Shown here: in pieces, positions 1 to 16,688 of the stretch | Layout of the letters: each line of letters begins with the position of its first letter | How positions within the stretch are numbered: the stretch's first letter is position 1 | Origin: an uncultured Desulfurobacterium sp. | Lineage (GTDB): Bacteria; Aquificota; Aquificia; Desulfurobacteriales; Desulfurobacteriaceae | Direction: 5' to 3' | Length of the DNA: 16,688 nt | Assembly (NCBI GenBank): GCA_913055135.1 | Contig: CAJXJV010000007.1 | Coordinates: 1-16,688, forward strand | Position numbers and translations under genes: made by a program | Notes under the pieces: generated by a model | Told to the model about the DNA's origin: nothing | What the model saw: only the letters and a program-made list of their open reading frames with translations | Databases searched by the model: none

Positions 1-1
1 A

Positions 2-709: not shown

Positions 710-710
710 A

Positions 711-878
711 TTACTCCTTGTTGACTACTTTTATAACGGGTTTTTCTTTTTCCTCCTCTTCTCCTTCAAGTCCTTTTTTGAACTCCTCTTTTGCAACAAA
801 GAAGGACTTAATGAGGTTAATTATCTTATCCCATCCAAAGAGAACACCAACCACAATCAGAAGAAGAACTATCTTCAT
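711..878 (-). CDS. Small membrane-anchored protein, 55 residues
   Basis: A short minus-strand frame begins with ATG at 878 and ends with TAA at 711. A purine-rich ribosome site (GAGAGGTG) lies about ten bases upstream of the ATG. Residues 2-15 form a hydrophobic membrane segment (MKIVLLLIVVGVLFGW). An amphipathic stretch and a very acidic/basic tail follow (GEEEEKEKPVIK), so it probably sits in the inner membrane with a charged cytoplasmic tail. Its stop lies one base from the stop of the LysM gene on the other strand. I do not recognise the family. The overlapping plus-strand frame at 718-903 is Ser/Thr/Phe-rich nonsense and lacks a ribosome site, which favours this strand. It could be a single-pass accessory subunit, but nothing in the sequence shows a partner. 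Confidence 0.6.
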   Translation of the reverse strand: MKIVLLLIVVGVLFGWDKIINLIKSFFVAKEEFKKGLEGEEEEKEKPVIKVVNKE

Positions 879-914
879 CAACAATTTTCACCTCTCAGAT
901 TAACGATTAACTCT

Positions 915-920
915 ATTATA
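915..920 (-). promoter_or_regulatory. Candidate -10 box for the 55-residue gene
   Basis: The minus strand reads TATAAT at 920-915, about 37 bases upstream of the ATG at 878. No good -35 box lies at the usual distance. The palindrome at 925-943 occupies that place instead. The call rests on the perfect -10 alone. Confidence 0.3.
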
Positions 921-924
921 CTCC

Positions 925-950
925 AAAGGACAAACTGTCCTTTATTTTTA
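925..950 (+). terminator. Perfect 8-bp hairpin; plus-strand terminator or operator
   Basis: AAAGGACA (925-932), a three-base loop AAC, and TGTCCTTT (936-943) form a perfect inverted repeat. On the plus strand a T-rich run (ATTTTTA) follows, as in an intrinsic terminator, and would stop read-through from the LysM gene. On the minus strand it begins ten bases after the zinc-ribbon gene stop but has no U-tract. There it also sits just upstream of a TATAAT, so an operator role is an alternative. Confidence 0.45.
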
Positions 951-953
951 GCC

Positions 954-1109
954 TCAGCCAAATGGTGAACAGGCATTTGCAATGTCGATTACTTCAACAT
1001 CTTCAGATCCGCAAAATGGGCACTTGATCTCCATCAGTTGAAGAGGGGTATAAATTGCCTCTTCAAACTCGGCACCGCAACTGTTACACTCAAAGATGTA
1101 AATTTGCAC
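954..1109 (-). CDS. FmdB-type zinc ribbon protein, 51 residues
   Basis: A minus-strand gene starts with GTG at 1109 behind a strong ribosome site (CCGGAGGT) and ends with TGA at 954. The product opens MQIYIFECNSCGAEFEE and carries a second cysteine pair in KCPFCGSEDVEV. The two CxxC knuckles, 19 residues apart between first cysteines of the CNSCG and CPFCG pairs at about positions 8/11 and 30/33, form a single zinc ribbon. The aromatic 'Y-F-C' opening is typical of the FmdB/CxxC_CXXC_SSSS family of small putative regulators. The family's molecular role is poorly known; metal binding is expected. The gene is divergent from the helicase operon, 57 bases away, so a shared regulatory region is likely. 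A regulatory role over either neighbour is speculation. Confidence 0.75.
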   Translation of the reverse strand: MQIYIFECNSCGAEFEEAIYTPLQLMEIKCPFCGSEDVEVIDIANACSPFG

Positions 1110-1131
1110 GTTTACCTCCGGTGGTTAGAAT
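1104..1131 (+). promoter_or_regulatory. Weak candidate promoter for the helicase operon
   Basis: TTGCAC (1104-1109) and TAGAAT (1126-1131) are 16 bases apart and lie about 35 bases upstream of the helicase ATG. The -35 match is partial, and this segment overlaps the start of the divergent zinc-ribbon gene. It is proposed only because the eight-gene operon needs a promoter in the 57-base gap or just inside that gene. Confidence 0.25.
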
Positions 1132-1166
1132 TTATGCACCCATTAATTTAGGAGTTTTCTGAGGAA

Positions 1167-3458
1167 ATGAAAATAATCAAAGTTTTAGAATCAAGTAAAT
1201 TTAATGGTAGAACAGGAACTGTAGAGTACATTTTAGAGGGTGAATTAAAAAAAGAGGCTCTTGTTCCTGTAAAGGGTACAGGTTTAAAAGTTTCATTTGA
1301 ATTTCTCAATCCTATCCAGACGTTATTCTTCAAGTTTTACAAAGGTGGAAATGCTCTTGTCTCTTCTCCTACAAGTTCTGGAAAGACATTGATAGCTCTT
1401 CTCTTCTATTTAAAGAACAGGAACAACGGGCGCTTTATCTACACTGCCCCTACACGGTCTTTGATATGGGAAAAGTTCAGAGAATTCAAAAGTTTCTTCA
1501 GGGCGATAGGGATAAGAACCGGCGATTTAGTAGAGGAATTAGATGAAATTGTTCAGCCGGCGGTTGTCGCCACCTATGAAAGTTTACTTTCTGCTGCGAG
1601 AAACAGAGTTAGATGGTTTGAAGAAGCCGGTGCGGTGGTGATTGATGAAATACACATAATCAGAGATCCTTCGAGGGGAGCAGGAATTGAGGAGATTGTC
1701 AGTTACTGTCTTGAGGAGGAAATTCCTGTTTTGTCCCTTTCTGCTACCATACCGGGAGCGGAGGAGTTAGCAAGGTGGATTGATGCGGAACTGTTCATTG
1801 AATCGGAATGGAGACCTGTTCCCTTAGAGAGAAGGGTTTTCAATATGCCAAAGCTTTTGAGGAAAATAAAGGCTCCCAGGAGCTCTCCTGAAGAGAAGAT
1901 TGTATCCGTCCTGGAACATTTGAACTTAGAGGGAAAAACGATTGCGTTTGTTCCAAGGAAAGATTTAGGCTGGCAGTCTTTGAAGGTGGATAATACAATC
2001 TACAACAGAAAAGTTTTAAATGAAACGTTGCCGTTTGAAGTGGAGGAAACGGAGAGTAAAAAGATAGTTGCTTTTCACAATGCAGATGTTCCGCAAGAAG
2101 AAAGAGAAGAGATAGAAAAGGAGTTTAAAGAGGGGAATCTCAATCGGCTCTATGCTACCCAGACCCTTGCTTATGGAGTGAATCTCCCGGCAGATAACGT
2201 TGTTATTTTTGTCAGGGGAAGTTTTGATAGGTTTACCTACAGGTATCGCTTTTTCCCTGATCCTCTTACTATTCTTCAAATGGAGGGAAGGGCAGGAAGG
2301 TTTGGGCTTTCAGAAAAAGGTTATTCATTTATAGTCGTGACCGGGGCAAAGGAGGGAGCTCTCGAAAAAGCTCTTGAAGAGGAGCTCCAGATGCCCTTTG
2401 AAACTGCCCTCTCTTCTGGAATAGAGAGAAGAGAGAGTGCTGCCTGTCCCAACAGGAGAAAGGCTTATCTGAGCTTAATGATTTTGGGACCTCTGATAAG
2501 GTATGGAGATAGATGGAAAGAGGCTGTAAAGTCAATGTTCAGCATAAAGAGGAATCCCCTCCTCATTAATGAGATTGAGGAAATTCTGGAAGAGCTGGAA
2601 TCTACAGGTTTTATAGTAGATGGAAAGCCATCTCTTCTTACCAGAATCCTCGTTTCCTCTTTTGTTTCTCCGTTCTGTTACGGGGAATTTCAGGAAAGAC
2701 TTCAGTCAGCTAAGGAGAGCCTTGAAGCAGGAATAGAGAGGACGTATCTCTACTCCTTTATTGTGAGACCCTTTATAAGAAGGGAACTGAATCCGTCAAC
2801 AGTTGCGCTTTTTACAGGTAAAGCTTTTTATGAAGAGGCACAGAGGATAAGGGATAGAGTGAAAGAGGTTTCGGGACTGGACGTTAATGATAACTCGGAC
2901 GTTCTGGCTTTTTATGCATCTGGAAGATTCTTTCTCTTCAAAAATGTTGCCAGACCCCCGGGGGACCTTTCTACTTTACCAACCGAGAGCTCCCTCCTCG
3001 GACAGCTTCTGTGCAGATTGAATATTTTCGATTTTGAAACACTCCACAGGGTTGCAATGATGATAAGGTCCGGGATTCCTTTTGAGTTTTCTCTTTTGGG
3101 TGCTGTTGAGGGTTTGGGTTATATGAGAGGAAATGCTCTGGCACTGACGGGACAGAGAGCCGGAATCACAAATGAAATAGCCTTAGTAAATGGAATCCGT
3201 GAAGAGAACCGGGAGCTGCTGGAAGTTCTTAAAGAAACCCTTTCACTCAGGTATGACAGGAAGGAAAGTCTTGAAAAAGAATTCTCTGCAATTGTTAAGA
3301 TTGTGAAAGGGATTAAATTTCCACTTGGGAATTTGAAGTTTCTGCGATTTTTAGCATCCCTATTCGTTGGCAGACAGGAAGCTATTAAACTTTCAAAGGA
3401 AGACGCCCTGGAGGTGCTCTTTGAAAATGTCTCAGGACAGAAAGAAAATGAGAGTTAG
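1167..3458 (+). CDS. Ski2/Hel308-like superfamily 2 helicase
   Basis: The protein is 763 residues, starting at an ATG behind a GAGGA site. Superfamily 2 motifs appear in order: Q-motif-like LNPIQ (47-51), Walker A SSPTSSGKT (66-74, Lys73), motif Ia TAPTRSL (93-99), motif II DEIH (160-163), motif III SAT (192-194), motif IV AFVPRK (260-265), motif V TLAYGVNLP (333-341) and motif VI QMEGRAGRFG (371-380). DEIH together with QMEGRAGR points to the Ski2/Hel308 group (ATP-driven 3'-5' unwinding of DNA or RNA) rather than RecQ or RecG. Beyond residue 400 the sequence is poorly conserved to my eye. A segment at about 440-490 could be the winged-helix part of that group, followed by a helical ratchet-like region. 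The substrate cannot be read from sequence. It opens the operon, and its last 32 bases overlap the next gene. Confidence 0.9.
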   Translation: MKIIKVLESSKFNGRTGTVEYILEGELKKEALVPVKGTGLKVSFEFLNPIQTLFFKFYKGGNALVSSPTSSGKTLIALLFYLKNRNNGRFIYTAPTRSLIWEKFREFKSFFRAIGIRTGDLVEELDEIVQPAVVATYESLLSAARNRVRWFEEAGAVVIDEIHIIRDPSRGAGIEEIVSYCLEEEIPVLSLSATIPGAEELARWIDAELFIESEWRPVPLERRVFNMPKLLRKIKAPRSSPEEKIVSVLEHLNLEGKTIAFVPRKDLGWQSLKVDNTIYNRKVLNETLPFEVEETESKKIVAFHNADVPQEEREEIEKEFKEGNLNRLYATQTLAYGVNLPADNVVIFVRGSFDRFTYRYRFFPDPLTILQMEGRAGRFGLSEKGYSFIVVTGAKEGALEKALEEELQMPFETALSSGIERRESAACPNRRKAYLSLMILGPLIRYGDRWKEAVKSMFSIKRNPLLINEIEEILEELESTGFIVDGKPSLLTRILVSSFVSPFCYGEFQERLQSAKESLEAGIERTYLYSFIVRPFIRRELNPSTVALFTGKAFYEEAQRIRDRVKEVSGLDVNDNSDVLAFYASGRFFLFKNVARPPGDLSTLPTESSLLGQLLCRLNIFDFETLHRVAMMIRSGIPFEFSLLGAVEGLGYMRGNALALTGQRAGITNEIALVNGIREENRELLEVLKETLSLRYDRKESLEKEFSAIVKIVKGIKFPLGNLKFLRFLASLFVGRQEAIKLSKEDALEVLFENVSGQKENES
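3410..3416 (+). promoter_or_regulatory. Ribosome binding site setting the start of the 205-residue gene
   Basis: GGAGGTG lies ten bases before the ATG at 3427, inside the helicase coding sequence. It favours that ATG over the earlier in-frame TTG at 3367 and the later ATG at 3448, implying a 32-base overlap and coupled translation. Confidence 0.65.
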
Positions 3459-4044
3459 GATAGATGGCAAATATCAGGAGATAGAAGTTAGCAGCAAAAT
3501 GCCTAAAACTACGTCGGGGCTCTTGAGGCTTATTGAGTATAGATATCTCTTTCCAGAACGTTCTATAAAGTATGTTGAAAAAGATGGCGAAGTACTTCAT
3601 CCGACGAAGGTGGACGAGATAAAGGATCTTGAAGCCATAAACATAGTAACAGAATCTTCTGTGAACATGATAAAGAAACAGATAGAGCTGGCGCTAATAG
3701 CCCTTGATGCAATGGTTGTTTCGATCAATCAGATAGTTAATGACTGGAAAATAAAAGGGGATCTGGCAAAGCTTTACCTCAATAACCTTCTGGATTCCTT
3801 AGAGTGGACTGTTAAGGTAGTTGAAAATGGTTCAAAGATACTTCCCATATACGATGGACTTGAAGAGGCTATAGCAAAACTTGAGGATAAAATCTTTAGA
3901 ATTGATGATCTCATGTTTGAAGGAAAAGAGGAAGAAACAATAGAGGTTCTCATGAATGAGTTTCCAAGGGCTATAGAGGAGTGGAAAGAGTTTTTAAGGG
4001 ACATGATAAGGTTTATTAAATCAGCTTCTGGAGAGACCCACTAA
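3427..4044 (+). CDS. Unknown 205-residue protein coupled to the helicase
   Basis: I do not recognise the family. Residues 1-80 look like a small alpha/beta unit (MRVRIDGKYQEIEVSS, then RSIKYVEKDGEVLHPTKVDEI), with the strand pattern of a beta-grasp or ubiquitin-like fold; this is only an impression. From about residue 80 the protein is all helical, with acidic amphipathic helices (MIKKQIELALIALDAM; LYLNNLLDSLEWTVKVVENG; AIAKLEDKIFRIDDLM) and a C-terminal helix with two tryptophans in the helical half. There is no signal peptide, membrane segment, cysteine or obvious catalytic motif, so it is probably a cytoplasmic binding or structural protein. Its ribosome site lies inside the helicase gene with a 32-base overlap, and the prepilin peptidase ATG follows its stop directly. 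Coupling suggests similar dosage to the helicase, and perhaps a complex. Confidence 0.8.
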   Translation: MSQDRKKMRVRIDGKYQEIEVSSKMPKTTSGLLRLIEYRYLFPERSIKYVEKDGEVLHPTKVDEIKDLEAINIVTESSVNMIKKQIELALIALDAMVVSINQIVNDWKIKGDLAKLYLNNLLDSLEWTVKVVENGSKILPIYDGLEEAIAKLEDKIFRIDDLMFEGKEEETIEVLMNEFPRAIEEWKEFLRDMIRFIKSASGETH

Positions 4045-4815
4045 ATGGAATATCTGATGGCGTTTATCTTTGGAACGATTGTGGGTAGTTTTCTCAATGT
4101 TTGCATTTACAGAATCCCCATGGGAGAATCTGTAATCTATCCATTTTCTCACTGTCCTAAATGTGGCGAAAAGATTAAGTGGTATGACAACATTCCAATT
4201 ATCAGTTATTTAATCCTGAGGGGAAAGTGTAGAAACTGCGGGGAGAAAATTTCAGTTCAATATCCTCTAATAGAACTTTTAACAGGAATCCTTACAGCAG
4301 GAGTTATCTGGAAATATGGAATTTCATTAGTCTCTCTCTATTTTTTGATTTTAGCCTGTGTGTTAATTGTGGTTTCCATGATTGATCTGAAAACGATGCT
4401 TGTGCCCATAAAGCTCTGCTACTTTGCAATGGTTGCAGGAATTCTGCTTTCACCTTTTATTTCGATTAGCTCTTTCAAGGACTCCATTTTAGGAGCATCC
4501 TTTGGAGCAGGAATAATTCTCTTTATCATTGAAACCTACTACATATTTACAGGCAAAGAGGGTATGGGATATGGAGATGCTAACATAATGGCACTTATCG
4601 GTGCTTTCTTAGGATGGGAAAAAGTGTTGTTAACGATATTCTTCGCTTCACTGATTGGATCTGTTGTTGGAGTTGCCCTTATGGTTCTGAAGGGTAAAAA
4701 CACAAAGTTCGCACTGCCTTTTGGACCCTTTCTCTCTGCAGGAGCATACATTACAATACTGTTTGGCAATGAAATAATCAATTGGTATCTGGGGAAATTA
4801 GGATGGTGTTTTTGA
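4045..4815 (+). CDS. pilD: Prepilin peptidase / N-methyltransferase (type IV leader peptidase)
   Basis: This inner-membrane aspartic protease cuts the leader of type IV pilin or type II secretion pseudopilins and methylates the new N-terminus. The 256 residues begin with the family's N-terminal motif GSFLNVCIYRIP. A four-cysteine zinc-type pair follows (CPKCG about residues 33-36, CRNCG about 58-62), the mark of bifunctional enzymes with the methyltransferase loop. Then come several membrane helices with both catalytic aspartates, in MIDLKTMLVP and GMGYGDANIM. The end (LPFGPFLSAGAY) is also typical. The ATG follows the previous stop with no gap, and no separate strong ribosome site is visible, so translation is probably coupled. 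No pilin gene is in the window, so its substrates are encoded elsewhere. Confidence 0.95.
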   Translation: MEYLMAFIFGTIVGSFLNVCIYRIPMGESVIYPFSHCPKCGEKIKWYDNIPIISYLILRGKCRNCGEKISVQYPLIELLTGILTAGVIWKYGISLVSLYFLILACVLIVVSMIDLKTMLVPIKLCYFAMVAGILLSPFISISSFKDSILGASFGAGIILFIIETYYIFTGKEGMGYGDANIMALIGAFLGWEKVLLTIFFASLIGSVVGVALMVLKGKNTKFALPFGPFLSAGAYITILFGNEIINWYLGKLGWCF

Positions 4816-5453
4816 GGAAAGTGGAAAATTTTCTGTTAAAAACCTCTGAGACTTTTCTTATTGCTATAACGATGGCTTTGCTAATTATCTCTTTTATTCT
4901 TTTCTTTGAATTTGTAGCAATGTCCCCTCATTTCTTTCACATTGAAGAGATAATCTTCTCCGGTCATATGAAGGATGCTACAGAGAGTCTGAAAGAGATC
5001 ATCTCTCCTCTCTTGATGTTTGTTATTGTCGTCGAACTTATCGTTATGCTGATAAAACATCAGCCAAGAATCGTTTTTGATGTTCTTTTAATTGCGGTTG
5101 CAAGAGAAATCATCATTGCAGGACATAATTTCAAGGATGTTCTGCTGGGATCTATTTCACTTTTGGTTCTTTTCTTCATCAGGAAGTTCTTGACTCTTAA
5201 AAGTGTTCCACCTGGAACAGCAGTTATCATAGATCCATATATAACGATTGAGGCTTTGAATGAAATGCTGGATGTTTACATTCCTTTCGAAGAGGAAAAG
5301 TATCTGATTGATCTTATAGAAAAAATTTCTAAGGAAAGAGGAGTTGTTCTCAAAAAACGGAAGATAGTTGACATCGCAAATGTTAAGATAGAAATACTGG
5401 ATACTGATGAAAGAGGAAAACCTATCTTAGTAAGGGTGATAAAGACAGCGTAG
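4803..5453 (+). CDS. PsiE-like integral membrane protein
   Basis: The 216-residue product starts at an ATG 13 bases inside the end of the prepilin peptidase gene. A TTG at 4782 is in frame but less likely. The N-terminal half has about four hydrophobic helices: FLIAITMALLIISFILFFEF; LLMFVIVVELIVMLI; a segment with VAREIII; and LLGSISLLVLFFI. The FE motif of helix 1, the glutamate in helix 2 and the 'AREII' motif match my memory of the PsiE (phosphate-starvation-inducible) family. The C-terminal 80 residues are soluble and charged (EMLDVYIPFEEEKYLIDLIEKISKE), and longer than in short PsiE proteins. The function of PsiE proteins is unknown. Nothing here shows phosphate control (no Pho box seen). 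Confidence 0.65.
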   Translation: MVFLRKVENFLLKTSETFLIAITMALLIISFILFFEFVAMSPHFFHIEEIIFSGHMKDATESLKEIISPLLMFVIVVELIVMLIKHQPRIVFDVLLIAVAREIIIAGHNFKDVLLGSISLLVLFFIRKFLTLKSVPPGTAVIIDPYITIEALNEMLDVYIPFEEEKYLIDLIEKISKERGVVLKKRKIVDIANVKIEILDTDERGKPILVRVIKTA

Positions 5454-5466
5454 ATCAGGGAAAGCC

Positions 5467-6105
5467 GTGACAGTTATCGGAATAGATCTCTGTACCTCTG
5501 AAGGAAGTGTTTCCCTTGTGAAAGAGGGGGAACCCTTAGGCGTTTCCATGTGGAATCAGTCCAGAAAACACGCTGAGAGGGTTTTTGTAGAAATAGAGAG
5601 ACTATTAGAGAAATCAGGTATAGGAAAAGAAGATGTAAATCTTGCTGTGGTTACTTCGGGTCCCGGTTCGTTCACAGGAGTGAGGCTTTCTGTTACTGTT
5701 GGGAAATCCTTGAAGGTCTTGGGACTTGATGTAAAAGCGGTTTCAACTCTTCAACTTGTGGGTTTTGGGATCCTTAAAATGGGATTACCCGTGGTTTCAC
5801 TCTTTCCCGGTAGAAGAAATAGGTACTATACACTGATCAGGGAAAGGATTGGAGATTCTACAGAGGTTCTGGATTTGTCTGAGGAGGAGTTGTTCTCCAT
5901 CCTGAAAGAGCTTTCTGAGTATAGAGTTGTTTATAAGGGAACTGTTCCGGAAACTATAAAGAACAATTTCAAAACTCTGTATGAGACAACTCCCCTTTCC
6001 CTTATTGCTGCACTTCTTCCTTTTGAAGCTCCTCAGCTGCTCAAGTCTCTTCACTTCTACTACGTAAGAGATCACGATGCAAAACCTTCTTGTAAGGGAC
6101 TGTAG
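5467..6105 (+). CDS. tsaB: tRNA t6A threonylcarbamoyltransferase complex protein TsaB
   Basis: TsaB (YeaZ) is the inactive actin-fold partner of TsaD in making N6-threonylcarbamoyladenosine at position 37 of ANN-decoding tRNAs. The 212 residues open with the ASKHA phosphate-loop strand (VIGIDLCTSEGSVSLV). The family signature follows: SRKHAERVF at about 32-40 and SGPGSFTGVRLSV at about 64-76. The C-terminal part is short and diverged, as usual for TsaB. The start is a GTG with AGGGAA upstream. It lies 13 bases after the PsiE-like gene and overlaps rimI by 29 bases. The tsaB-rimI pairing is common in bacteria and supports both calls. tsaD, tsaC and tsaE are not in the window. Confidence 0.93.
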   Translation: MTVIGIDLCTSEGSVSLVKEGEPLGVSMWNQSRKHAERVFVEIERLLEKSGIGKEDVNLAVVTSGPGSFTGVRLSVTVGKSLKVLGLDVKAVSTLQLVGFGILKMGLPVVSLFPGRRNRYYTLIRERIGDSTEVLDLSEEELFSILKELSEYRVVYKGTVPETIKNNFKTLYETTPLSLIAALLPFEAPQLLKSLHFYYVRDHDAKPSCKGL

Positions 6106-6541
6106 AAGGGAAGATTTAAGTGCTATACTAAAAATAGAGAAGGAATCTTTTCCTGACCCGTGGGGAAGAGAGCTTCTTGAGAAGGAGTTGTCTCTTTCCT
6201 TTTCTTGGTTTATCGTTGCAGAAGTGGATGGAGAAGTTGTTGGTTATCTGGTAGCCTGGATAGTAGGAGATTCCTGCGAATTGAACAGGATAGCGGTTAC
6301 ACCTTGTATGAGAAGTAGAGGAGTAGGGAAAAGATTACTTTATGAACTAATAAATTATTGTAAAAATAGAAACGTTAAAGAGATTTTTCTTGAGGTTAGA
6401 GAATCCAATTTAAACGCAATTAAACTTTACGGTAGTTCCGGTTTTGAGAAAATCTCTGTCAGAAAAAATTATTACGTCAGAGAGAGTGCTTTTATCTACC
6501 GGCTTAAACTAGATAAAGGAGGAGAAAATGCTCAGGGATGA
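6077..6541 (+). CDS. rimI: RimI-type GNAT N-acetyltransferase
   Basis: The 154 residues carry a complete GNAT fold. The N-terminal strand and helices include the RimI-like KIEKESFPDPWG. A core strand follows (FIVAEVDGEVVGYLVAW), then the start of motif A (ELNRIAVTP) and the acetyl-CoA pyrophosphate loop RSRGVGKRLL at about 86-95. The end carries the family pattern EVRESNLNAIKLYGSSGFE. RimI acetylates the alpha-amino group of ribosomal protein S18 in Escherichia coli; thermophile homologues may have wider protein targets. The ATG lies 29 bases inside tsaB. The 3' end overlaps the next gene by 14 bases, and that gene's GGAGGA site is inside rimI. Confidence 0.88.
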   Translation: MQNLLVRDCRREDLSAILKIEKESFPDPWGRELLEKELSLSFSWFIVAEVDGEVVGYLVAWIVGDSCELNRIAVTPCMRSRGVGKRLLYELINYCKNRNVKEIFLEVRESNLNAIKLYGSSGFEKISVRKNYYVRESAFIYRLKLDKGGENAQG

Positions 6542-6764
6542 AAATCTAAAGGCTCTTGCAAGGGAGAAGTTTCACCGCTTTAGGACTCTGGAAAGGAAGC
6601 ATCAGGAACTGGACGACATGATAGATGAACTGGAGAAGAAAGCTGTCATTACACCGAAAGAGGAACTTGAACTGGAAAGGATGAAGAAAGAGAGACTGAA
6701 ACTCAGAGATGAGATGATGCTCCTCATGAAGAAAGCCAAGGAGGAAGTTGAGAATGAGAAGTGA
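6528..6764 (+). CDS. DUF465 (YdcH-like) small coiled-coil protein
   Basis: The 78-residue protein starts at an ATG with an excellent ribosome site (AGGAGGAG). It is almost wholly helical and charged. It shows the DUF465/YdcH layout: a first helix with the [21 protein letters not shown] pattern (F..L..kH.eLD..I), a turn, then [16 protein letters not shown] (LKk.kL.lkDei). The family is widespread and of unknown function, expected to form a helical hairpin or dimer in the cytoplasm. Its end overlaps ilvD by 11 bases, and the AAGGAGG for ilvD lies in its last codons. A link to leucine/valine synthesis is therefore positional only. Confidence 0.8.
6738..6744 (+). promoter_or_regulatory. Ribosome binding site setting the ilvD start
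   Basis: AAGGAGG lies nine bases before the ATG at 6754, within the DUF465 gene. It argues against the in-frame TTG at 6748, which would be only three bases from the site. Confidence 0.7.
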
Positions 6765-8406
6765 TGTTCTGAGGGAGTTTGAGAAGCTTCCTGCCCGTGC
6801 CCTCATGATGGCGACCGGAATTCAGAGGAAGGACATAGATAAGCCTTTGATCGGGATAATCTCAAGCTGGACAGATCTTGTTCCCGGTCATGTCGATATG
6901 TTCTCCCTGGAGAGATTTATAGAAAGAGGGGTTGCAGCGGCTGGTGGTACACCGTTTGTTGTTCGTGTTCCTGCTATTTGTGACGGTATTGCCATGGGAC
7001 ATGAAGGAATGAGATTTTCTCTTCCTTTGAGGGAGCTCATAGCCGATGCAGTTGAAGACGTTGTAATTGCCCATCAACTTGATGGTGTCGTCCTTCTCAC
7101 AGCTTGTGACAAGATAACTCCCGGAATGCTTATGGGAGTTGCAAGGCTAAATGTTCCTGCAATTGTTGTTACAGCAGGTCCAATGCTTGCAGGAAGGAGA
7201 GGAAAAGAAAGGCTTGACCTTGTTACCCATACATTTGAGGCTATTGGAAGGTACAAGGCAGGAGAGATAACACTTGAGGAACTCCTTGAACTCGAAGGAG
7301 CAGCATGTCCTTCTTCAGGATCGTGTCAGGGAATGTTTACTGCAAACACGATGGCGTGTCTTTCAGAGGCTCTTGGAATGTCTCTTCCATACTGCGGAAC
7401 CTCACCTGCACCTCTGGCAGAGAAGAAGAGAATAGCAGAGGCATCTGGAGAGAAAATTGTTGAGTTAGTTAGAAAAGGGATAAAGGCACGGGACATACTG
7501 ACACCGGCAGCTTTCAGAAATGCAATAAGGGTTGACCTCGCCCTCGGTGGTTCTACAAACACAGTTCTCCACCTTCCGGCAATTGCCCACGAAGCGGGAG
7601 TTCCTTTTGAGATTAAGCTTTTTGACGACCTGAGCAGGGAAACTCCAAAGATCTGTAGCATGAGACCTGGTGGAAAGTACCTGATGGAAGACCTCCACTA
7701 CGCTGGAGGAATTCCAGGAGTTCTCAAAAGACTCTACGATAGTTTAGAAGACAATCCAACAGTTCTTGGAGTGAACATCAAGCAGATTGCTGCAAGCGCA
7801 AGGATTTGGGATGAAGACGTTATAAGACCGGTTGATAACCCATACAGTCCAGAGGGTGGGATTGCAATTCTCTACGGCAACCTTGCTCCACATGGGGCTG
7901 TTGTTAAACAGGGTGCAGTTTCAGATAAGATGAAGGTCTTTACCGGGACCGCAAGGGTCTTTGATTGTGAAGAAGATGCAATGAAAGCTGTAATGGATGG
8001 AAAGATAAAAGCTGGAGATATCATTGTTATCAGATATGAAGGACCTAAAGGTGGTCCCGGAATGAGAGAGATGCTTGCCGTAACGGCTTCTGTAATGGGA
8101 ATGGGACTTGGAGAATCGGTTGCTCTCATTACAGATGGAAGATTCTCAGGTGGAACCCACGGTCCCTGCATTGGTCACATCTCTCCTGAGGCAGCAGAAG
8201 GCGGTCCTATTGGAGTTGTTCAGGAAGGGGATAAGATTCACATAAACATTCCTGAGAGGAGGCTTGAGCTCATTATTTCTGAGGAAGAGCTCAAAAAGAG
8301 ACTTGAGAACTTCAAACCGAAGCAGAAAGAGATAAAATCAAAACTCCTCAGAAAGTACGCAAAGCTTGTAACTTCTGCCGCAAAAGGAGCAATCCAGGAC
8401 GTTTAA
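6754..8406 (+). CDS. ilvD: Dihydroxy-acid dehydratase
   Basis: The enzyme dehydrates 2,3-dihydroxy-isovalerate and 2,3-dihydroxy-3-methylvalerate to the 2-oxo acids that become valine, leucine and isoleucine. At 550 residues it is full length for the family. Landmarks are MRSD at the N-terminus, VPGHVDM (about 43-49), [11 protein letters not shown] (about 76-86), the cluster and carbamylated-lysine-type motif [10 protein letters not shown] (C118, K120), [18 protein letters not shown] (C191) and the C-terminal [19 protein letters not shown]. The position that is 'PCN' in some [2Fe-2S] enzymes is 'PGH' here, as in the E. coli oxygen-sensitive [4Fe-4S] type; C76 may supply a further ligand. That suits an anaerobe, but cluster type is inferred. 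It is the last gene before a strong terminator. Confidence 0.97.
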
Positions 8407-8415
8407 TCCTTCCTT

Positions 8416-11289
<2,874 letters not shown>

Positions 11290-11909
11290 TTGGATATTTC
11301 CGGAAGTTTCTGGAATTCTACGGTTTTTCTGAAGAGAACTTTGATCAGGATAAGTTACAGTCCTTTCTCTCTACCCGATATAGAACTGAGAGAAGTTTCA
11401 GAACAGCAGTTTCAGCCATTCAACGTTTTCTGAAGTTTCAGGATGTAAGAGTGGATTTAAAGATTGAGTTTCCTCTATCCGGTGAATTTAAAGAGTTTAG
11501 AGAAATAGGGAAGGAGATGATCAACAGTATTGAAAATGAGGTGAATGCTCTGAGGTCTGATGAGTTAAAACTTTCTTTGTTCCTCATTATTCATTTAGGT
11601 CTGGCTCCCTCAGAGATTTCGCTTCTTAAAGTATCATCCTACGGGTCTTTTTTAGGAGTTCCTATCCTTGAAGAGGGGAAGGTGAAAAGATTTGTTCTGG
11701 AAGAGAAACTTAACAAGAAGCTAAAGGATTTGAAGGAAAGGAAACTGCCTGAAGATAAACTTGTGGATGTTTCACCAGGGACTGTGAAGGTTACTTTTCA
11801 TCGGATAATGAAAAAATTAGGGTTGAATTTAAAAGTGTCAGATTTCAGGGATAACTACGTTGCAGAGCTCCTGAAAAAGGGACTTCCGCAGGATATTGTG
11901 GTTGAGTAT

Positions 11910-12683
11910 TCAGGGTGTAGTCTTGATAGAGTTGCTTACATAGGTAGAGTTTTCTTCTTGCGGAGCAAGGCGGATATTATTGAGGCTAATCTCAAAGAGT
12001 CTTGAGATGAATATCTCTTCACCATCTGTAAAAGTTGAGATTTCTCCGAGCTTTGATAGTTCTAATATTGCAAGGAAGTATGTAATCAGCTCAAGCTTGC
12101 AGGAGCTTTTTTCTACAAAATCTGAGAAAGGAATCAGGTATTTCTCCTTCATTAAGAATCGGATCTCTTCCATCTTTACCGGAACTTTGAAGGCTTCGCT
12201 GGAGATGTTTATTCCAACTTTGATCTGTGGCTGAAACTTCTCTGTTAGAATGTTCTCGAAAGCTCTTCTTAGGTCTTCTACCGTATTGGCTATCTTTATT
12301 TTGTCCTGAAACTGAAATATCAGGTCGGAAGGGTCATTTGTAAAGTATTTTGAAGCTTTCTCTTCTAACCTTTCCAGTTCCCTGGCAGCCCGTTTAGATT
12401 TGAGGTACTCCTCTATTATCTGAACAATTGTTTTTCCTGGATCCTCATCGTCTTCCCGGGGAATCAGGAGCTCCGACTTTATCTTTGCTAAGGTTGCAGC
12501 CATTACAAGGAATTCAGAGGCAAGGGGGATGTTAAGCTCCTGCATGCTGTATATGTAGTTGAGAAACTCTTCAGTAATCTCTGCAATAGGGATGTCGTAA
12601 ATGCTTACTTCCCGTTTCTTTATCAGATAAACCAGCAGATCTAATGGTCCTTCAAATACCTCTGTTTCAACTTTTATGTTCAT
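11910..12683 (-). CDS. scpA: Segregation and condensation protein A (kleisin)
   Basis: ScpA is the kleisin bridging the heads of the bacterial SMC dimer, with ScpB, for chromosome condensation. The 257 residues open with the diagnostic FEGPLDLLVYLIKKREVSIYDIPIAEITEEFL (split here: FEGPLDLLVYLI, then VSIYDIPIAEITEEFL). LASEFLVMAATLAKIKSELL follows at about 55-74, then a charged linker. A C-terminal winged helix (YFLAILELSKLGEI) binds the SMC head. The tail after about residue 235 is not conserved and is encoded opposite the recombinase-like gene. The ATG at 12683 lies nine bases after the CBS-gene stop. Its ribosome site (AGGGGA) is within that gene's last codons, so the two are co-transcribed. 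scpB is not in the window. Confidence 0.95.
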   Translation of the reverse strand: MNIKVETEVFEGPLDLLVYLIKKREVSIYDIPIAEITEEFLNYIYSMQELNIPLASEFLVMAATLAKIKSELLIPREDDEDPGKTIVQIIEEYLKSKRAARELERLEEKASKYFTNDPSDLIFQFQDKIKIANTVEDLRRAFENILTEKFQPQIKVGINISSEAFKVPVKMEEIRFLMKEKYLIPFSDFVEKSSCKLELITYFLAILELSKLGEISTFTDGEEIFISRLFEISLNNIRLAPQEENSTYVSNSIKTTP

Positions 12684-12692
12684 CTACAGCTT

Positions 12693-13097
12693 CTATCCCC
12701 TTATGGCTACTATGAGATTTGCAAATTCAGTTGTGAGAAGCTCGAGTATGTCGTCAATAGAAATTAGACCTACAAGTTTTCCATCCTTATCCACAACAAT
12801 CAGCCTTCTAACAGCTGCTTTTCTAAAGGCTTTTGTAAGATCAAAGAAGCTTGCATCATCCCTTATGGTTATTGGATCCCTTGTCATTACTTCTCTAACG
12901 GGGGTGGTTGGATCTTTACCTGCTCCTACAACCCTTATTGCTATGTCCCTGTCGGTTATTATTCCTGCTGGTTTATCCCCGTCCAGAACAACAAGACTTC
13001 CGACCATTTTGTCCTTCATTCTTTGAGCGGCAAGCATTACGGGGTCTTCAGGTTCAATCGTAACAACTTTTCTCTGAATCAGGTCTTTAACAGGCAT
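12693..13097 (-). CDS. Two-CBS-domain protein
   Basis: The 134 residues are two CBS domains and nothing else. The first spans about 1-58 (MPVKDLIQRKVVTIEPEDPV ... GIITDRDIAIRVV). The second spans about 66-128 (VREVMTRDPITIRDDAS ... LVGLISIDDILELL). Such proteins pair their CBS units into a Bateman module that binds AMP, ATP or a similar adenosine ligand and acts as an energy sensor or partner-protein regulator. The GxxTDRD motif, with its ligand-phosphate Asp, is intact in the first domain; the second has LISIDDIL. The ligand and target are unknown. The ATG at 13097 has a very strong ribosome site (AAAGGAGGGAG), which lies in one arm of a long inverted repeat (13097-13167) and could be hidden in the RNA. 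scpA follows nine bases downstream. Confidence 0.93.
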   Translation of the reverse strand: MPVKDLIQRKVVTIEPEDPVMLAAQRMKDKMVGSLVVLDGDKPAGIITDRDIAIRVVGAGKDPTTPVREVMTRDPITIRDDASFFDLTKAFRKAAVRRLIVVDKDGKLVGLISIDDILELLTTEFANLIVAIRG

Positions 13098-13175: not shown

Positions 13176-13778
13176 TTAACTCTTTGATATACCTGCGAGT
13201 CTCAACTCATACTTTGGGTGGTTAATGTTGTACATTGTTGGAAATTTCTGGTAGATAGGACCTGCGTATATAACCTTTCCATTTGACTTAACTTCGATGA
13301 GTATGGCAGGGTTGTTGGGTTCGTTCGAACCGGAAGTGTATCCCTGATCAAGAACAAGGTGGGGAACGATATAGAGAATCTTGATGTCGAGACCGTCATA
13401 CTTTATTTCTGCTCCTTTTGTGACTTTTTCTGTTTTTACTGCTTTTCCTGTTGTCTTGTCAATGATTTTAACTGTTGCGTATTTCCAGGTTTTAACGACT
13501 TCTTCGGGAATGTTGATTGGTCTGTTAAACTTGGTGAGTTTTTTTCCTGAATGCATTGCTGCGAGTTCTTTTTCAGCTCCCATAGGCGGATGACCGGGAG
13601 GTAGCTGGTTGTTTATTGGAGGATGTCCTTGAGGCAGGTTGTTTTCGTGGGCAAGCTCTGTAATTGGCTTTGGAGCTTTGCTTTCAACTTTACTTCTGGT
13701 TTCCTCTTTTTTACCACAACCTGACAAGGCTACAGTTGCGGAAAGGAAAAAAGTTAAGAGAACCAAGCCTTTTTTCAT
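13176..13778 (-). CDS. DUF2155-like lipoprotein with PGHPP repeats
   Basis: The 200 residues start at an ATG with AGGAG upstream. A lipoprotein signal (KK, hydrophobic core, LSGC with lipid-carrying Cys21) places it on a membrane, facing the periplasm. After a Lys/Glu-rich linker come two near-copies of one motif, NNLPQGHPPI (46-55) and NNQLPPGHPPM (56-66). A beta-rich domain from about residue 93 follows (TWKYATVKIIDKTTGKAVKTEKV, split in phrase; then KYDGLDIKILYIV ... PAILIEVKSNGKVIYAGPIYQKFPTMY). Its pattern resembles DUF2155: 'conversion/definition' strands, a 'PNNPAILIEV' strand and a conserved end. The function is unknown. The histidines in the GHPP repeats could bind metal, but that is speculation. 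It is the first gene of the minus-strand group with the CBS gene and scpA. Confidence 0.75.
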   Translation of the reverse strand: MKKGLVLLTFFLSATVALSGCGKKEETRSKVESKAPKPITELAHENNLPQGHPPINNQLPPGHPPMGAEKELAAMHSGKKLTKFNRPINIPEEVVKTWKYATVKIIDKTTGKAVKTEKVTKGAEIKYDGLDIKILYIVPHLVLDQGYTSGSNEPNNPAILIEVKSNGKVIYAGPIYQKFPTMYNINHPKYELRLAGISKS

Positions 13779-13931: not shown

Positions 13932-13961
13932 AAGAAAAAAAAGCCGGAAGAGGTTAAATCT

Positions 13962-16688
13962 ATGAAGAGAAGAGAGTTCCTGAAGGTTGCCGGTCTTACA
14001 GTTCTGTTTGGTGGAACGTTCAAAATTAAAACCTCAAGGGGAGAAGAGCTTTTCAAGCCTGTTCTCATATTTGATCAGACAAAGTGTATGGGCTGTAAAG
14101 CCTGTATGGCAGCCTGTCAGCTTGAACACGGACTTGAAACAGAACCTGAAGTAAATCTCTTCTGGATAAAGGAAAAGGAAATAGGTAGATATCCAGAGGC
14201 AAAATTAACGTTCTATCAGGAGAACATCTGTAAGGAATGTATTGATCATCCCTGTGTTTCAGCCTGCCCGTTTGATGCGGTTTCCGTTAAGAAGGGTGGG
14301 ATTGTTTACATAGAAGAAGAGAGATGTACAGGGTGCAAAAAGTGTGTAGATGTTTGCCCTTACAACGCTATAACCTTTGATGAAAATGATAAAGCTAAGA
14401 AGTGTGACCTTTGTTTTGAAAGGATTTTGAAAAAAGGAGATGTTCCAAGGTGTGTTTCTGTTTGTCCAGGTGGAGCTCTTGTATTTGGAAACCTCTTAAA
14501 GCCAGAAGGACAGCTTGCAGAACTTCTTAAATCAAGACCTGAAGCGAAGAAGTTACTTCTCAAACACCTTCAGGCAGAGCTTGTCTTTAAACCTAAAGAA
14601 ACAGACGTTTTCGTTTTTCCCGAAACAAGAAAACCTGAAGGGGAAAGAATTGTTAACACAGTTTGTCTTGCCTGCAACGCAAGATGTGGACTGAGAGTGA
14701 CGGTCAAGGGAGATAGGCTTGTTCAGATTGATGGAAATCCATATCATCCTTACAACAGGGCGGGGAAAGAGATTCCTTATGATACTTCAGTTGAAAAGAG
14801 CTTTAACTCTGTTGCAACAACGTGTGCAAAACCACAGATGGATAACGACTATCTCCACAACCCTTACAGGATAACCCAACCTCTCAAAAGAATTGGTTCA
14901 AGGGGTTCTGGAAAGTTCAAACCAATAAGCTGGGAGCAGTTGATAAGAGAAGTTAGCGAAGGAGGATACATCTTTAAGGAGATTGGTGATAACAGGTACT
15001 ATCCCGGTATAAAGGACGTCCTTTCAGATGATCTGATTGATCCAGAAGCACCGGAGCTCGGTCCAAAGAGGAACCAGATTGTCTGGTTTACAGGAAGGTC
15101 TCAAGGAGGAAGGAGTCACTTCATAAAGAGGTGGTTGCTTAACTCTATCGGCTCAAAGAATTACATAAGCCATACAGACATCTGTGGAATTGGGTTTAGA
15201 ATGGGTAACTACGCCCTTACAGATGGAAAAGAGGTTGAGCTGAAGGCAGACTTCTGGAACTGCAAGTACATGCTGATATTTGGAGCAAACATCTACTCAG
15301 CACTTCAGCCGGGTGTAAACACATCAGGTTCGATAATTGCAAGGAGAATTGCATCTAAGGATTTGAAAATAGTTCTCATAGATCCAAGAGCTCCAAAAGC
15401 TGTTGCCCATGCCCACGACTGGCTTCCTGTAAGACCGACAAAAGACGGAAGCTTAGCCCTTGGATTACTAAGAGTAATGCTTGAAAATGGCTGGTACGAT
15501 AAGGATTTCCTCTCCATTCCATCAATGAAGGCAGCAAAAAAAGCAAAGAGAAATGTCTATACAAATGCCACACATCTTGTAATCGTTGATGAAAAACATC
15601 CTGAAACCGGGAGAATGCTAAGAGTTAAGGACGTTAAAGGATTGAAAGGAAAACCTGATGCAGAAATCGTTATAGACCCGGAAACCCTAAGACCGGTTCC
15701 TGCAGATTCTGTCCGTAGAGCTCTCTTAGAGTGGGAAGGGGAAATTAACGGAATTAAGGTCAAGACAGCCTTTAAGCTGATGAAAGAGAGCGTATTTGCA
15801 CACTCTCTTGATTTCTACTCAAGAGAGTGTGGAATTCCTGCCGAAAAGATTAAAAAGATTGCAAAGGAGTTCTGGGAACATGCTCCATATGCTGCAGCCT
15901 TTGCCTACCACGGTGGTGGAAACTACGTTGGAGGAACGTATGCAAGTTACGCCCTTTCGATGCTAAACGTTTTAGTCGGTAACATAAACAGGAAAGGTGG
16001 TTACCTTGGTAAAGGTAAAGGAGCTGCAAACTGGCAAAAAGGACTTTATGACCTCAAAAGCTTTCCCGGTGCAAGGAAACCTACGGGTGTTAAGATTTCA
16101 AGGGAAAAGGCAAAGTATGAAAAGTCAACTGAGTTTAAGAAAAGTGGTTATCCTTCAAAGCTTCCCTGGTTCAGCTTCACAAAAGGTGGTCTCTCTGTTT
16201 CTGCAATTTCCGGAATCGACCAGAAGTACCCATATCCAATAAAGATTCTCATAACCTACTTCTCTAACATCATCTACAGCATGCCAGGTGGAAGAAGGTT
16301 TATTGAAACCCTGAAAGACCAGGATAAAGTTCCACTCCACATCTCAATAGATACAACCATAAACGAGTCCAACATCTATGCCGACTACATCGTTCCAGAC
16401 GTTACATACCTTGAGGGGCACTACGGGTTTCTTACTCCCCATGCTCCAGGCTGCTGGTTCACAGCGGTTAGGACTCCGATCTTAGAGCCAATGACTGGAA
16501 GGACGGAAGATGGAAGACCTTTCTGCATGGAGACTTTCCTCATCGACGTCGCAAGACACCTCAATCTTCCAGGCTATGGAGAGAAAGCTATTCCCGCAAA
16601 AGATGGAAAGCTCTATCCTCTTATAAAGCCAGAGGACTATTATCTGAGAGGCATTGCAAACCTTGCCTTTAATGCTAAGGTAAAGGAT
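13962..16688 (+). CDS. Tat-exported ferredoxin-molybdopterin oxidoreductase fusion, TtrB+TtrA/PsrA-like (3' end outside window)
   Basis: The frame is open for 909 codons to the window end. It starts with a twin-arginine signal (MKRREFLK, hydrophobic VAGLTVLFGG), so it is folded with cofactors before export. Residues 42-190 form an electron-transfer ferredoxin domain with 16 cysteines in four groups: CMGCKACMAAC, CKECIDHPCVSAC, CTGCKKCVDVC, and CDLC with CVSVC. This is the four-cluster layout of TtrB/PsrB/DmsB subunits. From about residue 229 a molybdopterin catalytic subunit begins, with its own cluster motif CLACNARC (from C235) and CAKPQ, then PLKRIGSRGSGKF. C408 (DICGIGFR) is the likely molybdenum ligand. 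Late segments (LEGHYGF, LNLPGYGEKAI, PEDYYLRGIANLAF) recall tetrathionate reductase TtrA. Polysulfide or another sulfur/arsenic oxyanion is possible. These are normally two genes, so the fusion is notable. Confidence 0.88.
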   Translation, partial: MKRREFLKVAGLTVLFGGTFKIKTSRGEELFKPVLIFDQTKCMGCKACMAACQLEHGLETEPEVNLFWIKEKEIGRYPEAKLTFYQENICKECIDHPCVSACPFDAVSVKKGGIVYIEEERCTGCKKCVDVCPYNAITFDENDKAKKCDLCFERILKKGDVPRCVSVCPGGALVFGNLLKPEGQLAELLKSRPEAKKLLLKHLQAELVFKPKETDVFVFPETRKPEGERIVNTVCLACNARCGLRVTVKGDRLVQIDGNPYHPYNRAGKEIPYDTSVEKSFNSVATTCAKPQMDNDYLHNPYRITQPLKRIGSRGSGKFKPISWEQLIREVSEGGYIFKEIGDNRYYPGIKDVLSDDLIDPEAPELGPKRNQIVWFTGRSQGGRSHFIKRWLLNSIGSKNYISHTDICGIGFRMGNYALTDGKEVELKADFWNCKYMLIFGANIYSALQPGVNTSGSIIARRIASKDLKIVLIDPRAPKAVAHAHDWLPVRPTKDGSLALGLLRVMLENGWYDKDFLSIPSMKAAKKAKRNVYTNATHLVIVDEKHPETGRMLRVKDVKGLKGKPDAEIVIDPETLRPVPADSVRRALLEWEGEINGIKVKTAFKLMKESVFAHSLDFYSRECGIPAEKIKKIAKEFWEHAPYAAAFAYHGGGNYVGGTYASYALSMLNVLVGNINRKGGYLGKGKGAANWQKGLYDLKSFPGARKPTGVKISREKAKYEKSTEFKKSGYPSKLPWFSFTKGGLSVSAISGIDQKYPYPIKILITYFSNIIYSMPGGRRFIETLKDQDKVPLHISIDTTINESNIYADYIVPDVTYLEGHYGFLTPHAPGCWFTAVRTPILEPMTGRTEDGRPFCMETFLIDVARHLNLPGYGEKAIPAKDGKLYPLIKPEDYYLRGIANLAFNAKVKD

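What the first reader, a model, noticed from the sequence alone, without database searches (positions are those of the whole stretch)
13962..16688. Four-cluster ferredoxin subunit fused in front of a molybdopterin reductase, under one Tat signal
Directly seen: a single uninterrupted frame encodes RREFLK, then 16 cysteines in the TtrB/PsrB/DmsB pattern, then a CLACNARC-type molybdopterin subunit with TtrA-like late motifs. In known tetrathionate, polysulfide and DMSO reductases these are separate proteins. A fusion would fix a 1:1 ratio and a covalent wire of four clusters leading to the cluster and molybdenum of the catalytic part. It would also let the ferredoxin part's Tat signal export the whole. 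The respiratory role and substrate are inferred.
Basis: partly seen in the sequence, partly recalled or inferred. Interest (0 to 1): 0.75.

Follow-up and report, generated by a model that had tools for sequence, protein, structure and literature searches.

The report
Fused molybdoenzyme lacking its membrane anchor
In heat-loving hydrothermal-vent bacteria, two parts of a respiratory molybdenum enzyme that are normally separate proteins are one protein; the usual membrane part is missing, and the gene sits beside a gene for an exported transglutaminase-like enzyme whose job is unknown.

Summary
Window 13962-16688 (+) is one open frame: Tat motif, 16 ferredoxin cysteines, then a TtrA-like molybdopterin domain; it is cut by the contig end (close relatives: about 1172 aa). 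The same fusion occurs in 14 of 22 sampled genomes of the window's family, in Thermodesulfobacteria and in Nautilia. In the tree 35 fused proteins form one clade (100/99.6); one more fusion (P0049) seems separate. The clade lies beside unfused TtrB+TtrA proteins and fails NCBI's TtrA cut-off, so tetrathionate is not shown as substrate. Best reading: a soluble periplasmic TtrB::TtrA enzyme that arose after TtrC was lost and takes electrons from periplasmic cytochromes. Substrate, electron partner and the transglutaminase's role are inferred or unknown.

The parts
13962..16688 (+). fused ttrB::ttrA-like gene, 5' 909 codons; cut by the contig end
   Evidence: 95% identical to P0002 (1172 aa)
13962..14045 (+). 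Tat signal region (RREFLK at residue 3); its far end is not defined
   Evidence: sequence; an RRxF[LI]K motif near the start is present in 24 of 24 fused loci tested
14085..14117 (+). Cys motif I (C42, C45, C48, C52)
14229..14267 (+). Cys motif II (C90, C93, C98, C102); absent from five Thermosulfurimonas-type proteins
14325..14357 (+). Cys motif III (C122, C125, C128, C132); second Cys replaced in many homologues outside Desulfurobacteriaceae, motif absent from five Thermosulfurimonas-type proteins
14403..14465 (+). Cys motif IV (C148, C151, C164, C168)
14562..14645 (+). linker between ferredoxin and catalytic parts (about residues 201-228); pLDDT under 50 at 204-206 and 210-213 in the model of P0002
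14646..16688 (+). TtrA-like molybdopterin catalytic domain (residues 229 onward), about 263 C-terminal residues missing
14664..14825 (+). FS0 cluster cysteines C235, C238, C242, C288
   Evidence: invariant in 56 of 56 aligned proteins
15183..15185 (+). Cys408 in HTDICGIGFRMGN, taken as Mo ligand
   Evidence: invariant in 56 of 56 aligned proteins; aligns with a Cys of ArrA, (that this Cys is the Mo ligand is recalled)
13176..13778 (-). divergent DUF2155-like lipoprotein gene (below the Pfam cut-off here); a homologue is divergent from the fusion in 11 of 12 Desulfurobacteriaceae loci inspected (not at L071) and, by eye, at G022 (L037)
13946..13953 (+). ribosome-binding-like GGAAGAGG, 8 bases before the ATG
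   Evidence: by eye

Best explanation
The gene encodes a single-polypeptide, Tat-exported molybdoenzyme in which a TtrB-type four-cluster ferredoxin is fused in front of a TtrA-type catalytic subunit. It descends from a ttrB-ttrC-ttrA (BCA) type operon that first lost ttrC, leaving adjacent ttrB and ttrA beside a transglutaminase-like gene; then ttrB and ttrA became one frame, keeping TtrB's Tat signal and losing TtrA's. It works as a soluble periplasmic terminal reductase, or reversible oxidoreductase, of a sulfur or chalcogen oxyanion. Electrons enter at the ferredoxin part, probably from a periplasmic c-type cytochrome such as the NapC/NapM-type tetrahaem proteins rather than from an NrfD-type quinol subunit, and run cluster by cluster to FS0 and the Cys-ligated Mo. 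The exported transglutaminase-like cysteine enzyme encoded next to it is a functional partner, in maturation or in substrate handling. Shown: architecture, clade, absence of an adjacent TtrC, linkage to the transglutaminase gene. Inferred: direction, donor, substrate, order of events, role of the partner.
Against: I found no biochemistry for the clade. NapC is equally present in all 8 fusion-less relatives, so it is a candidate donor without specific support. Thermodesulfobacteria genomes were not searched for unlinked NrfD proteins, and PMC9751629 credits Thermosulfurimonas dismutans and T. marina with tetrathionate-reductase-type proteins, counts most such sulfur disproportionators as having complete TtrBCA, and allows ttrA to be paired with a distantly encoded ttrBC (passages), so an unlinked TtrC there is possible. 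One genome (G068) has the close transglutaminase gene with no fusion found, and G059, G084 and G101 have distant ones. Two unfused loci (L153, L154) have no transglutaminase beside them, so the link is not absolute. The own genome is 89.6% complete and four of the eight fusion-less genomes are 62-85% complete. The order 'TtrC lost first, fusion second' rests on a tree rooted with long outgroup branches.
Confidence: 0.55

Rival explanations
1. It is simply tetrathionate reductase: same substrate and quinol-linked respiration as Salmonella Ttr, with an unlinked membrane protein in place of TtrC.
For: TtrA is the best NCBIfam profile by far (580 bits against 202 for PhsA, 168 for ArrA). The Thermosulfurimonas dismutans protein TDIS_0362 was assigned tetrathionate reductase by phylogeny (PMC4911364, passage), and PMC9751629 allows ttrA with a distantly encoded ttrBC (passage).
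Against: Fails the strict TtrA cut-off of 1750 that Klebsiella TtrA passes with 2076; separated by long branches from Klebsiella TtrA; residues around the Mo Cys differ: HTDICGIGFRMGN against HGAYCGLAYRAGS; no close TtrC match in the 14 fusion-bearing genomes of the class sample.
Confidence: 0.2
2. It runs mainly in the oxidative direction: a periplasmic sulfur-compound dehydrogenase that passes electrons to c-type cytochromes and on to nitrate reductase, or serves sulfur disproportionation.
For: A TtrBCA-type enzyme was found abundantly only during thiosulfate disproportionation in Desulfolithobacter (PMC9751629, passages); proteins of that genus (P0099, P0119) are among the unfused relatives. 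Thermosulfurimonas dismutans couples sulfur oxidation to nitrate ammonification (PMC5276818, passages), and that genus carries the fused form with two remaining Cys motifs (P0045, P0048).
Against: The Desulfolithobacter operon has TtrC, and that paper notes that oxidising thiosulfate to tetrathionate with its menaquinone is thermodynamically unfavourable. Desulfurobacteriaceae are mostly known as H2-oxidising reducers (recalled).
Confidence: 0.2
3. [quoted passage not shown]
For: That group has versatile substrates (PMC10100899, passages); the best structural match is ArrA 6cz7_A, though tied with PsrA; a Porin_O_P gene (PF07396, 'phosphate-selective porin') lies between fusion and transglutaminase in 6 of 24 loci (Pfam run on two of the six, the others by BLAST similarity); a TtrA-like operon of Citrobacter arsenatis lies among arsenic genes.
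Against: The C. arsenatis protein is on a separate long branch with a different motif, HTNICELSHHIA. The porin is not between the two genes in 18 of 24 loci. Arsenic genes near the fused loci were not searched for.
Confidence: 0.15
4. The fusion is an assembly or sequencing artefact, or a decayed gene.
For: The window's own copy is cut by a contig end; the copy of G070 looks interrupted (not inspected).
Against: One open frame in 24 loci of 24 genomes and in about 40 of the database proteins listed, most of 1120-1180 aa; Cys408 and FS0 cysteines invariant.
Confidence: 0.01

Closest known systems
Tetrathionate reductase TtrBCA (Salmonella, Klebsiella; TtrA/SrdA/alternative arsenate reductase group)
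   Same: TtrB-type 4-cluster protein with its own Tat signal, TtrA-type catalytic subunit with one FS0 cluster and an active-site Cys, gene order B before A.
   Different: B and A are one chain, no adjacent TtrC, transglutaminase neighbour; P0002 is 34.2% identical to the Klebsiella TtrB/TtrA stretch and below NCBI's TtrA cut-off.
Unfused ttrB-ttrA pairs lacking ttrC in Desulfobacterota ('TtrAB cluster lacking TtrC', PMC9751629, passage)
   Same: Unfused proteins of this type are the neighbouring group in the tree; 50-52% identity to the fused protein, no TtrC in the seven loci inspected, transglutaminase neighbour in five of seven. That these seven loci are the clusters meant in the paper is inferred.
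   Different: Two genes; transglutaminase upstream of ttrB rather than downstream of the fusion.
ActB of alternative complex III
   Same: Known fusion of a catalytic-type and a ferredoxin-type CISM subunit.
   Different: Reverse order (6btm_B: catalytic part at chain residues 20-616, ferredoxin match at 772-827), no Mo cofactor (PMC10100899, passage), part of a membrane complex.
Formate dehydrogenases with an N-terminal Fe-S domain (8j83, 7vw6, 9ktl, 8rqz; FdsA-type)
   Same: Fe-S domain in front of a molybdopterin domain in one chain; structural alignments start at model residue 32-33.
   Different: FdsA's Fe-S part is shared with iron-only hydrogenases (PMC10100899, passage), not a four-cluster TtrB; not Tat-exported (recalled).
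ArrAB of Shewanella sp. ANA-3
   Same: Top structural match for the catalytic part, tied with PsrA; by recall, also lacks an NrfD anchor and is fed by a NapC-family cytochrome, CymA.
   Different: Two subunits, arsenate reductase; its place relative to the fused clade was not tested in a tree.

Membership tests
CISM (complex iron-sulfur molybdoenzyme) family | molybdopterin catalytic domain with FS0 cysteines and a 4-cluster ferredoxin module | tested here: met
   both on one chain
membrane-anchored TtrABC/PsrABC-type complex | dedicated NrfD/PsrC/TtrC anchor subunit | tested here: not met
   none adjacent at the 24 fused loci inspected; no close TtrC match in 14 fusion-bearing genomes; Thermodesulfobacteria genomes not searched genome-wide
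Tetrathionate reductase TtrA (NF011567) | score above the curated cut-off of 1750 bits | tested here: not met
   580 bits for P0002, 498 for the window fragment; Klebsiella TtrA control 2076; unfused Aquificota protein of G025 also fails, 985
Tetrathionate reductase TtrA (NF011567) | BCA operon with TtrC | tested here: not met
Tetrathionate reductase TtrA (NF011567) | tetrathionate reductase activity | not testable with these tools
   no enzymology
TtrA/SrdA/alternative ArrA group in the wide sense | catalytic domain groups with TtrA rather than PhsA/PsrA | tested here: met
   a tree rooted on two PsrA/PhsA-like rows puts it with TtrA-type rows; best profile TtrA; no ArrA or SrdA row was in the tree
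ActB | order A then B, loss of the Mo site | tested here: not met
   order B then A; Cys408 invariant
Transglut_core PF01841 (partner gene) | Pfam match and Cys-His-Asp triad | tested here: met
   Pfam matches above cut-off for L009, L010 and L152 partners; triad invariant in 27 aligned partners

The most novel reading that the evidence does not exclude
TtrBA plus transglutaminase is a distinct, undescribed periplasmic redox module of vent thermophiles and Desulfobacterota: a molybdoenzyme that shed its membrane anchor, became one chain and, in Thermosulfurimonas, shed a ferredoxin domain too, and whose activity depends on an exported transglutaminase-like cysteine enzyme that either matures the enzyme or prepares its substrate (for example by opening an amide or thiol-bound sulfur compound). 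It would be the missing molybdoenzyme of sulfur-intermediate metabolism in these organisms.
Probability: 0.35. Interest if true: 0.75.

Novelty: new variant of a known kind. Interest (0 to 1): 0.5.

Why it matters
Sulfur-compound respiration in Desulfurobacteriaceae lacks a settled enzyme: the Thermovibrio ammonificans genome paper calls its sulfur reduction pathway unclear, and a search of its main text for 'tetrathionate' and 'molybdo' found nothing (PMC5441870, passages); a 2025 paper calls the thiosulfate reduction mechanism of Desulfurobacterium thermolithotrophum unknown (PMC12724263, passages). This locus offers one exported enzyme in one piece, seemingly without a membrane subunit, which should be easier to express and assay than a three-subunit complex. 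It also suggests a readable series (BCA operon, BA pair without C, BA fusion, fusion with half of its ferredoxin motifs) for how a quinol-linked complex may turn into a soluble enzyme. The transglutaminase neighbour is a link I did not find in print: the search joining 'transglutaminase' and 'tetrathionate reductase' listed one paper, on fish-spoiling Shewanella, of which I saw only title and start of abstract.

Tried and rejected
Artefact: rejected, see rivals. Looking for the missing 3' end in the own genome: not found; the transglutaminase gene lies 44 bases from the end of contig C71, which fits a gap between C7 and C71, but the contigs were not joined. A TorD/NarJ chaperone (PF02613) is undetected in all 22 sampled genomes of the family, fused or not, so it does not discriminate. 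NapC as specific donor: present with and without the fusion. PF03916 alone proved too narrow, missing the TtrC-type proteins of G043 and L127, so a seven-row TtrC profile was used. The first tree (62 rows) had seven long outgroup rows and did not resolve the main fused group as one clade; five outgroup rows were dropped for the careful tree (57 rows). L012, L013 and L018 had long match spans; L012 proved to be separate A, B and membrane-protein genes, the other two were not inspected. The 27 transglutaminases aligned leave out those of L005, L009, L071 and L123. L158, a 39%-identity relative fetched, gave no recognisable ttrA in my ORF list and was not counted. Context in Nautiliaceae could not be reached: no genome handle from that phylum was obtained. 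Distances between clusters in the model were not measurable. The VIA-align rows mostly cover model residues 221-1172, so the ferredoxin part is barely tested by them.
Full report
Observation. The frame at 13962-16688 (+) is real and continuous, 909 codons to the contig end. It starts with RREFLK, carries 16 cysteines in four motifs, then FS0 cysteines and a molybdopterin domain. The nearest full-length relative, named Desulfurobacterium crinifex by its source, is 95% identical and has 1172 aa. The last 263 residues were not found in the assembly, which is 89.6% complete.

The fusion is a stable family. Of the 120 best database homologues listed out of 404, the top group are mostly proteins of 1120-1180 aa with both domain sets; those with names come from Desulfurobacterium, Thermovibrio, Phorcysia, Nautilia, Thermodesulfatator and Thermosulfuriphilus. 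In a sample of 61 genomes of the window's class the fusion is in 14, all in the window's family (14 of 22 there); six others, all in one other family (f4), have an unfused TtrA-like gene. Among 41 Thermodesulfobacteria-class genomes 20 match at 1e-60, of which 17 are of the main type by identity. Fourteen loci were fetched: the twelve of the main type are all fused, seven with 15-17 and five with 8 cysteines before FS0; the two distant ones (G091, G077) are unfused. Of the other main-type genomes, G061 holds the start of a fusion, and G065, G070, G097 and G100 were not inspected; G070's copy looks interrupted.

Phylogeny. On the catalytic domain, 35 fused proteins are one side of a branch with support 100/99.6 (57 rows). 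P0049 sits among 18 unfused proteins (branch support 99/73 and better), so a second fusion is likely. Rooted on Klebsiella, Azospirillum and G025 TtrA-type rows, whose branches are long, fused and unfused groups are sisters. The alignment around Cys408 separates both from Klebsiella TtrA. A 2023 survey reports a seemingly novel lineage sister to the TtrA group (PMC10100899, passage); I could not check whether it is this one.

No adjacent membrane subunit. In Klebsiella, Azospirillum and Aquificota G025, G043 and G005 the order is B-C-A. At the 24 fused loci inspected no NrfD/TtrC-like gene was recognised beside the fusion. PF03916 has no match in 11 of 14 fusion-bearing genomes, and the other three hits sit with other enzymes. 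A TtrC profile gives E<1e-100 in all six genomes with unfused TtrA-like genes (three of which supplied profile rows) and nothing close in the fourteen fused ones. This genome-wide test was not made for Thermodesulfobacteria, where PMC9751629 allows ttrA to be paired with a distant ttrBC (passage). Among unfused relatives with 51-53% identity, seven of seven loci inspected (L151-L157; an eighth, from G299, was not fetched) have ttrB next to ttrA and no ttrC.

How the fusion probably arose. BCA operons with a Tat signal on B are typical of the Ttr clade (PMC2500031, passage). Loss of C brings B and A together; in L151, L152, L155 and L156 the two open frames overlap as listed, a short step from a single frame. 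The result keeps B's Tat signal, as seen.

A conserved neighbour. An exported transglutaminase-like gene (PF01841) is the next gene in 18 of 24 fused loci and follows a porin-type gene in the other six; in L070 a 122 aa frame also intervenes. In the class sample it is in 14 of 14 fusion-bearing and 0 of 8 fusion-less genomes of the family; one more of the 61 genomes has a distant copy. In the Thermodesulfobacteria class 17 of 41 genomes match at 1e-20. Three of them, G068 (close) and G084 and G101 (distant), have no main-type fusion; three main-type genomes lack it, G061, G097 and G100, and in each the match coordinates suggest that the contig ends there. Five of seven unfused loci have it upstream of ttrB. 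The triad is invariant in the 27 partners aligned. Its role is unknown. The superfamily is large, with 6055 of 8000 scored candidates at 1e-15, so the linkage, not the fold, is special. Export is inferred from hydrophobic N termini, not predicted by a tool.

Ferredoxin variation. The twelve Desulfurobacteriaceae loci have 16 cysteines before FS0. Many homologues outside that family replace the second Cys of motif III by D, E, H or L, which may make a [3Fe-4S] or an oddly ligated cluster (inference); P0031 (Thermodesulfatator atlanticus) keeps it. Nautilia PV-1 and three like proteins keep four cysteines with different spacing. P0040, P0041, P0045, P0047 and P0048 lack motifs II and III altogether. 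By recall motifs I+IV and II+III each build one ferredoxin-fold domain, the second facing the membrane subunit in formate dehydrogenase N; losing it fits an enzyme that no longer docks on a membrane subunit.

Structure. The model of P0002 is confident across both parts (pLDDT 91.8, pTM 0.92, under 50 only at 1-3, 204-206 and 210-213 among stretches of three or more). Best solved matches are ArrA and PsrA, tied.

Function. Not shown. Members of the TtrA group reduce tetrathionate, selenate or arsenate (PMC10100899, passages). A one-contig genome of the window's own genus, G002, lacks the fusion, and D. thermolithotrophum HR11 reduces thiosulfate without a membrane-bound molybdopterin thiosulfate/polysulfide reductase (PMC12724263, passage), so the fused enzyme does not seem needed for thiosulfate reduction throughout the genus. 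A distant unfused B-A pair without C (L128) lies beside genes with seven and four haem-binding motifs, weak support for a cytochrome partner. Published work on Thermosulfurimonas and other disproportionators names TtrA-type proteins there (PMC4911364, PMC9751629, passages); the word 'fused' does not occur in those two main texts.

Verdict. Real, widespread and orderly; a new variant of a known kind of enzyme, with an unreported neighbour gene and a testable change from membrane complex to soluble enzyme.

Noticed in passing
L083:5764-10568: A TtrBCA-like operon on a conjugative plasmid of Citrobacter arsenatis lies between arsenic-resistance genes; its B subunit is annotated as DsrO, which looks like a naming error for a TtrB-type protein.
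   Followed up: partly
L085:5882-6799: The transglutaminase gene of the window's genome lies 44 bases from the end of contig C71, probably beyond the gap after window base 16688.
   Followed up: partly
L128:4104-12780: A distant unfused B-A pair without C beside genes with seven and four CxxCH motifs and another molybdopterin-type protein.
   Followed up: no
L070:4733-5101: A 122 aa open frame sits between porin and transglutaminase in this locus (contig length equals that of Thermovibrio ammonificans).
   Followed up: no
L121:9523-10062 and homologues in L123-L126: A small methyltransferase-like gene (weak Pfam matches, below cut-off) lies close downstream of the transglutaminase in the loci with the two-motif ferredoxin part.
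   Followed up: no
L155:3082-5642: Two multi-helix membrane proteins, one weakly cytochrome bd-like, lie on the same strand downstream of an unfused ttrA.
   Followed up: partly
P0049: A separate B-then-A fusion nested among unfused proteins (1227 aa); genome context not reached.
   Followed up: partly
G070:C215:15504-18040: The fused gene of this genome looks interrupted (two matches, one with a stop codon).
   Followed up: no
window 13176-13778 (-): DUF2155-like lipoprotein with LPPGHPP-type repeats, divergent from the fusion in 11 of 12 Desulfurobacteriaceae loci inspected.
   Followed up: no
window 1-13097: The rest looks ordinary: LysM/M23 peptidase, DEAD helicase, type IV leader peptidase, TsaD-family, SLT transglycosylase, ScpA and CBS genes by Pfam; RimI-, IlvD-, Tgt- and integrase-like genes by eye.
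   Followed up: partly
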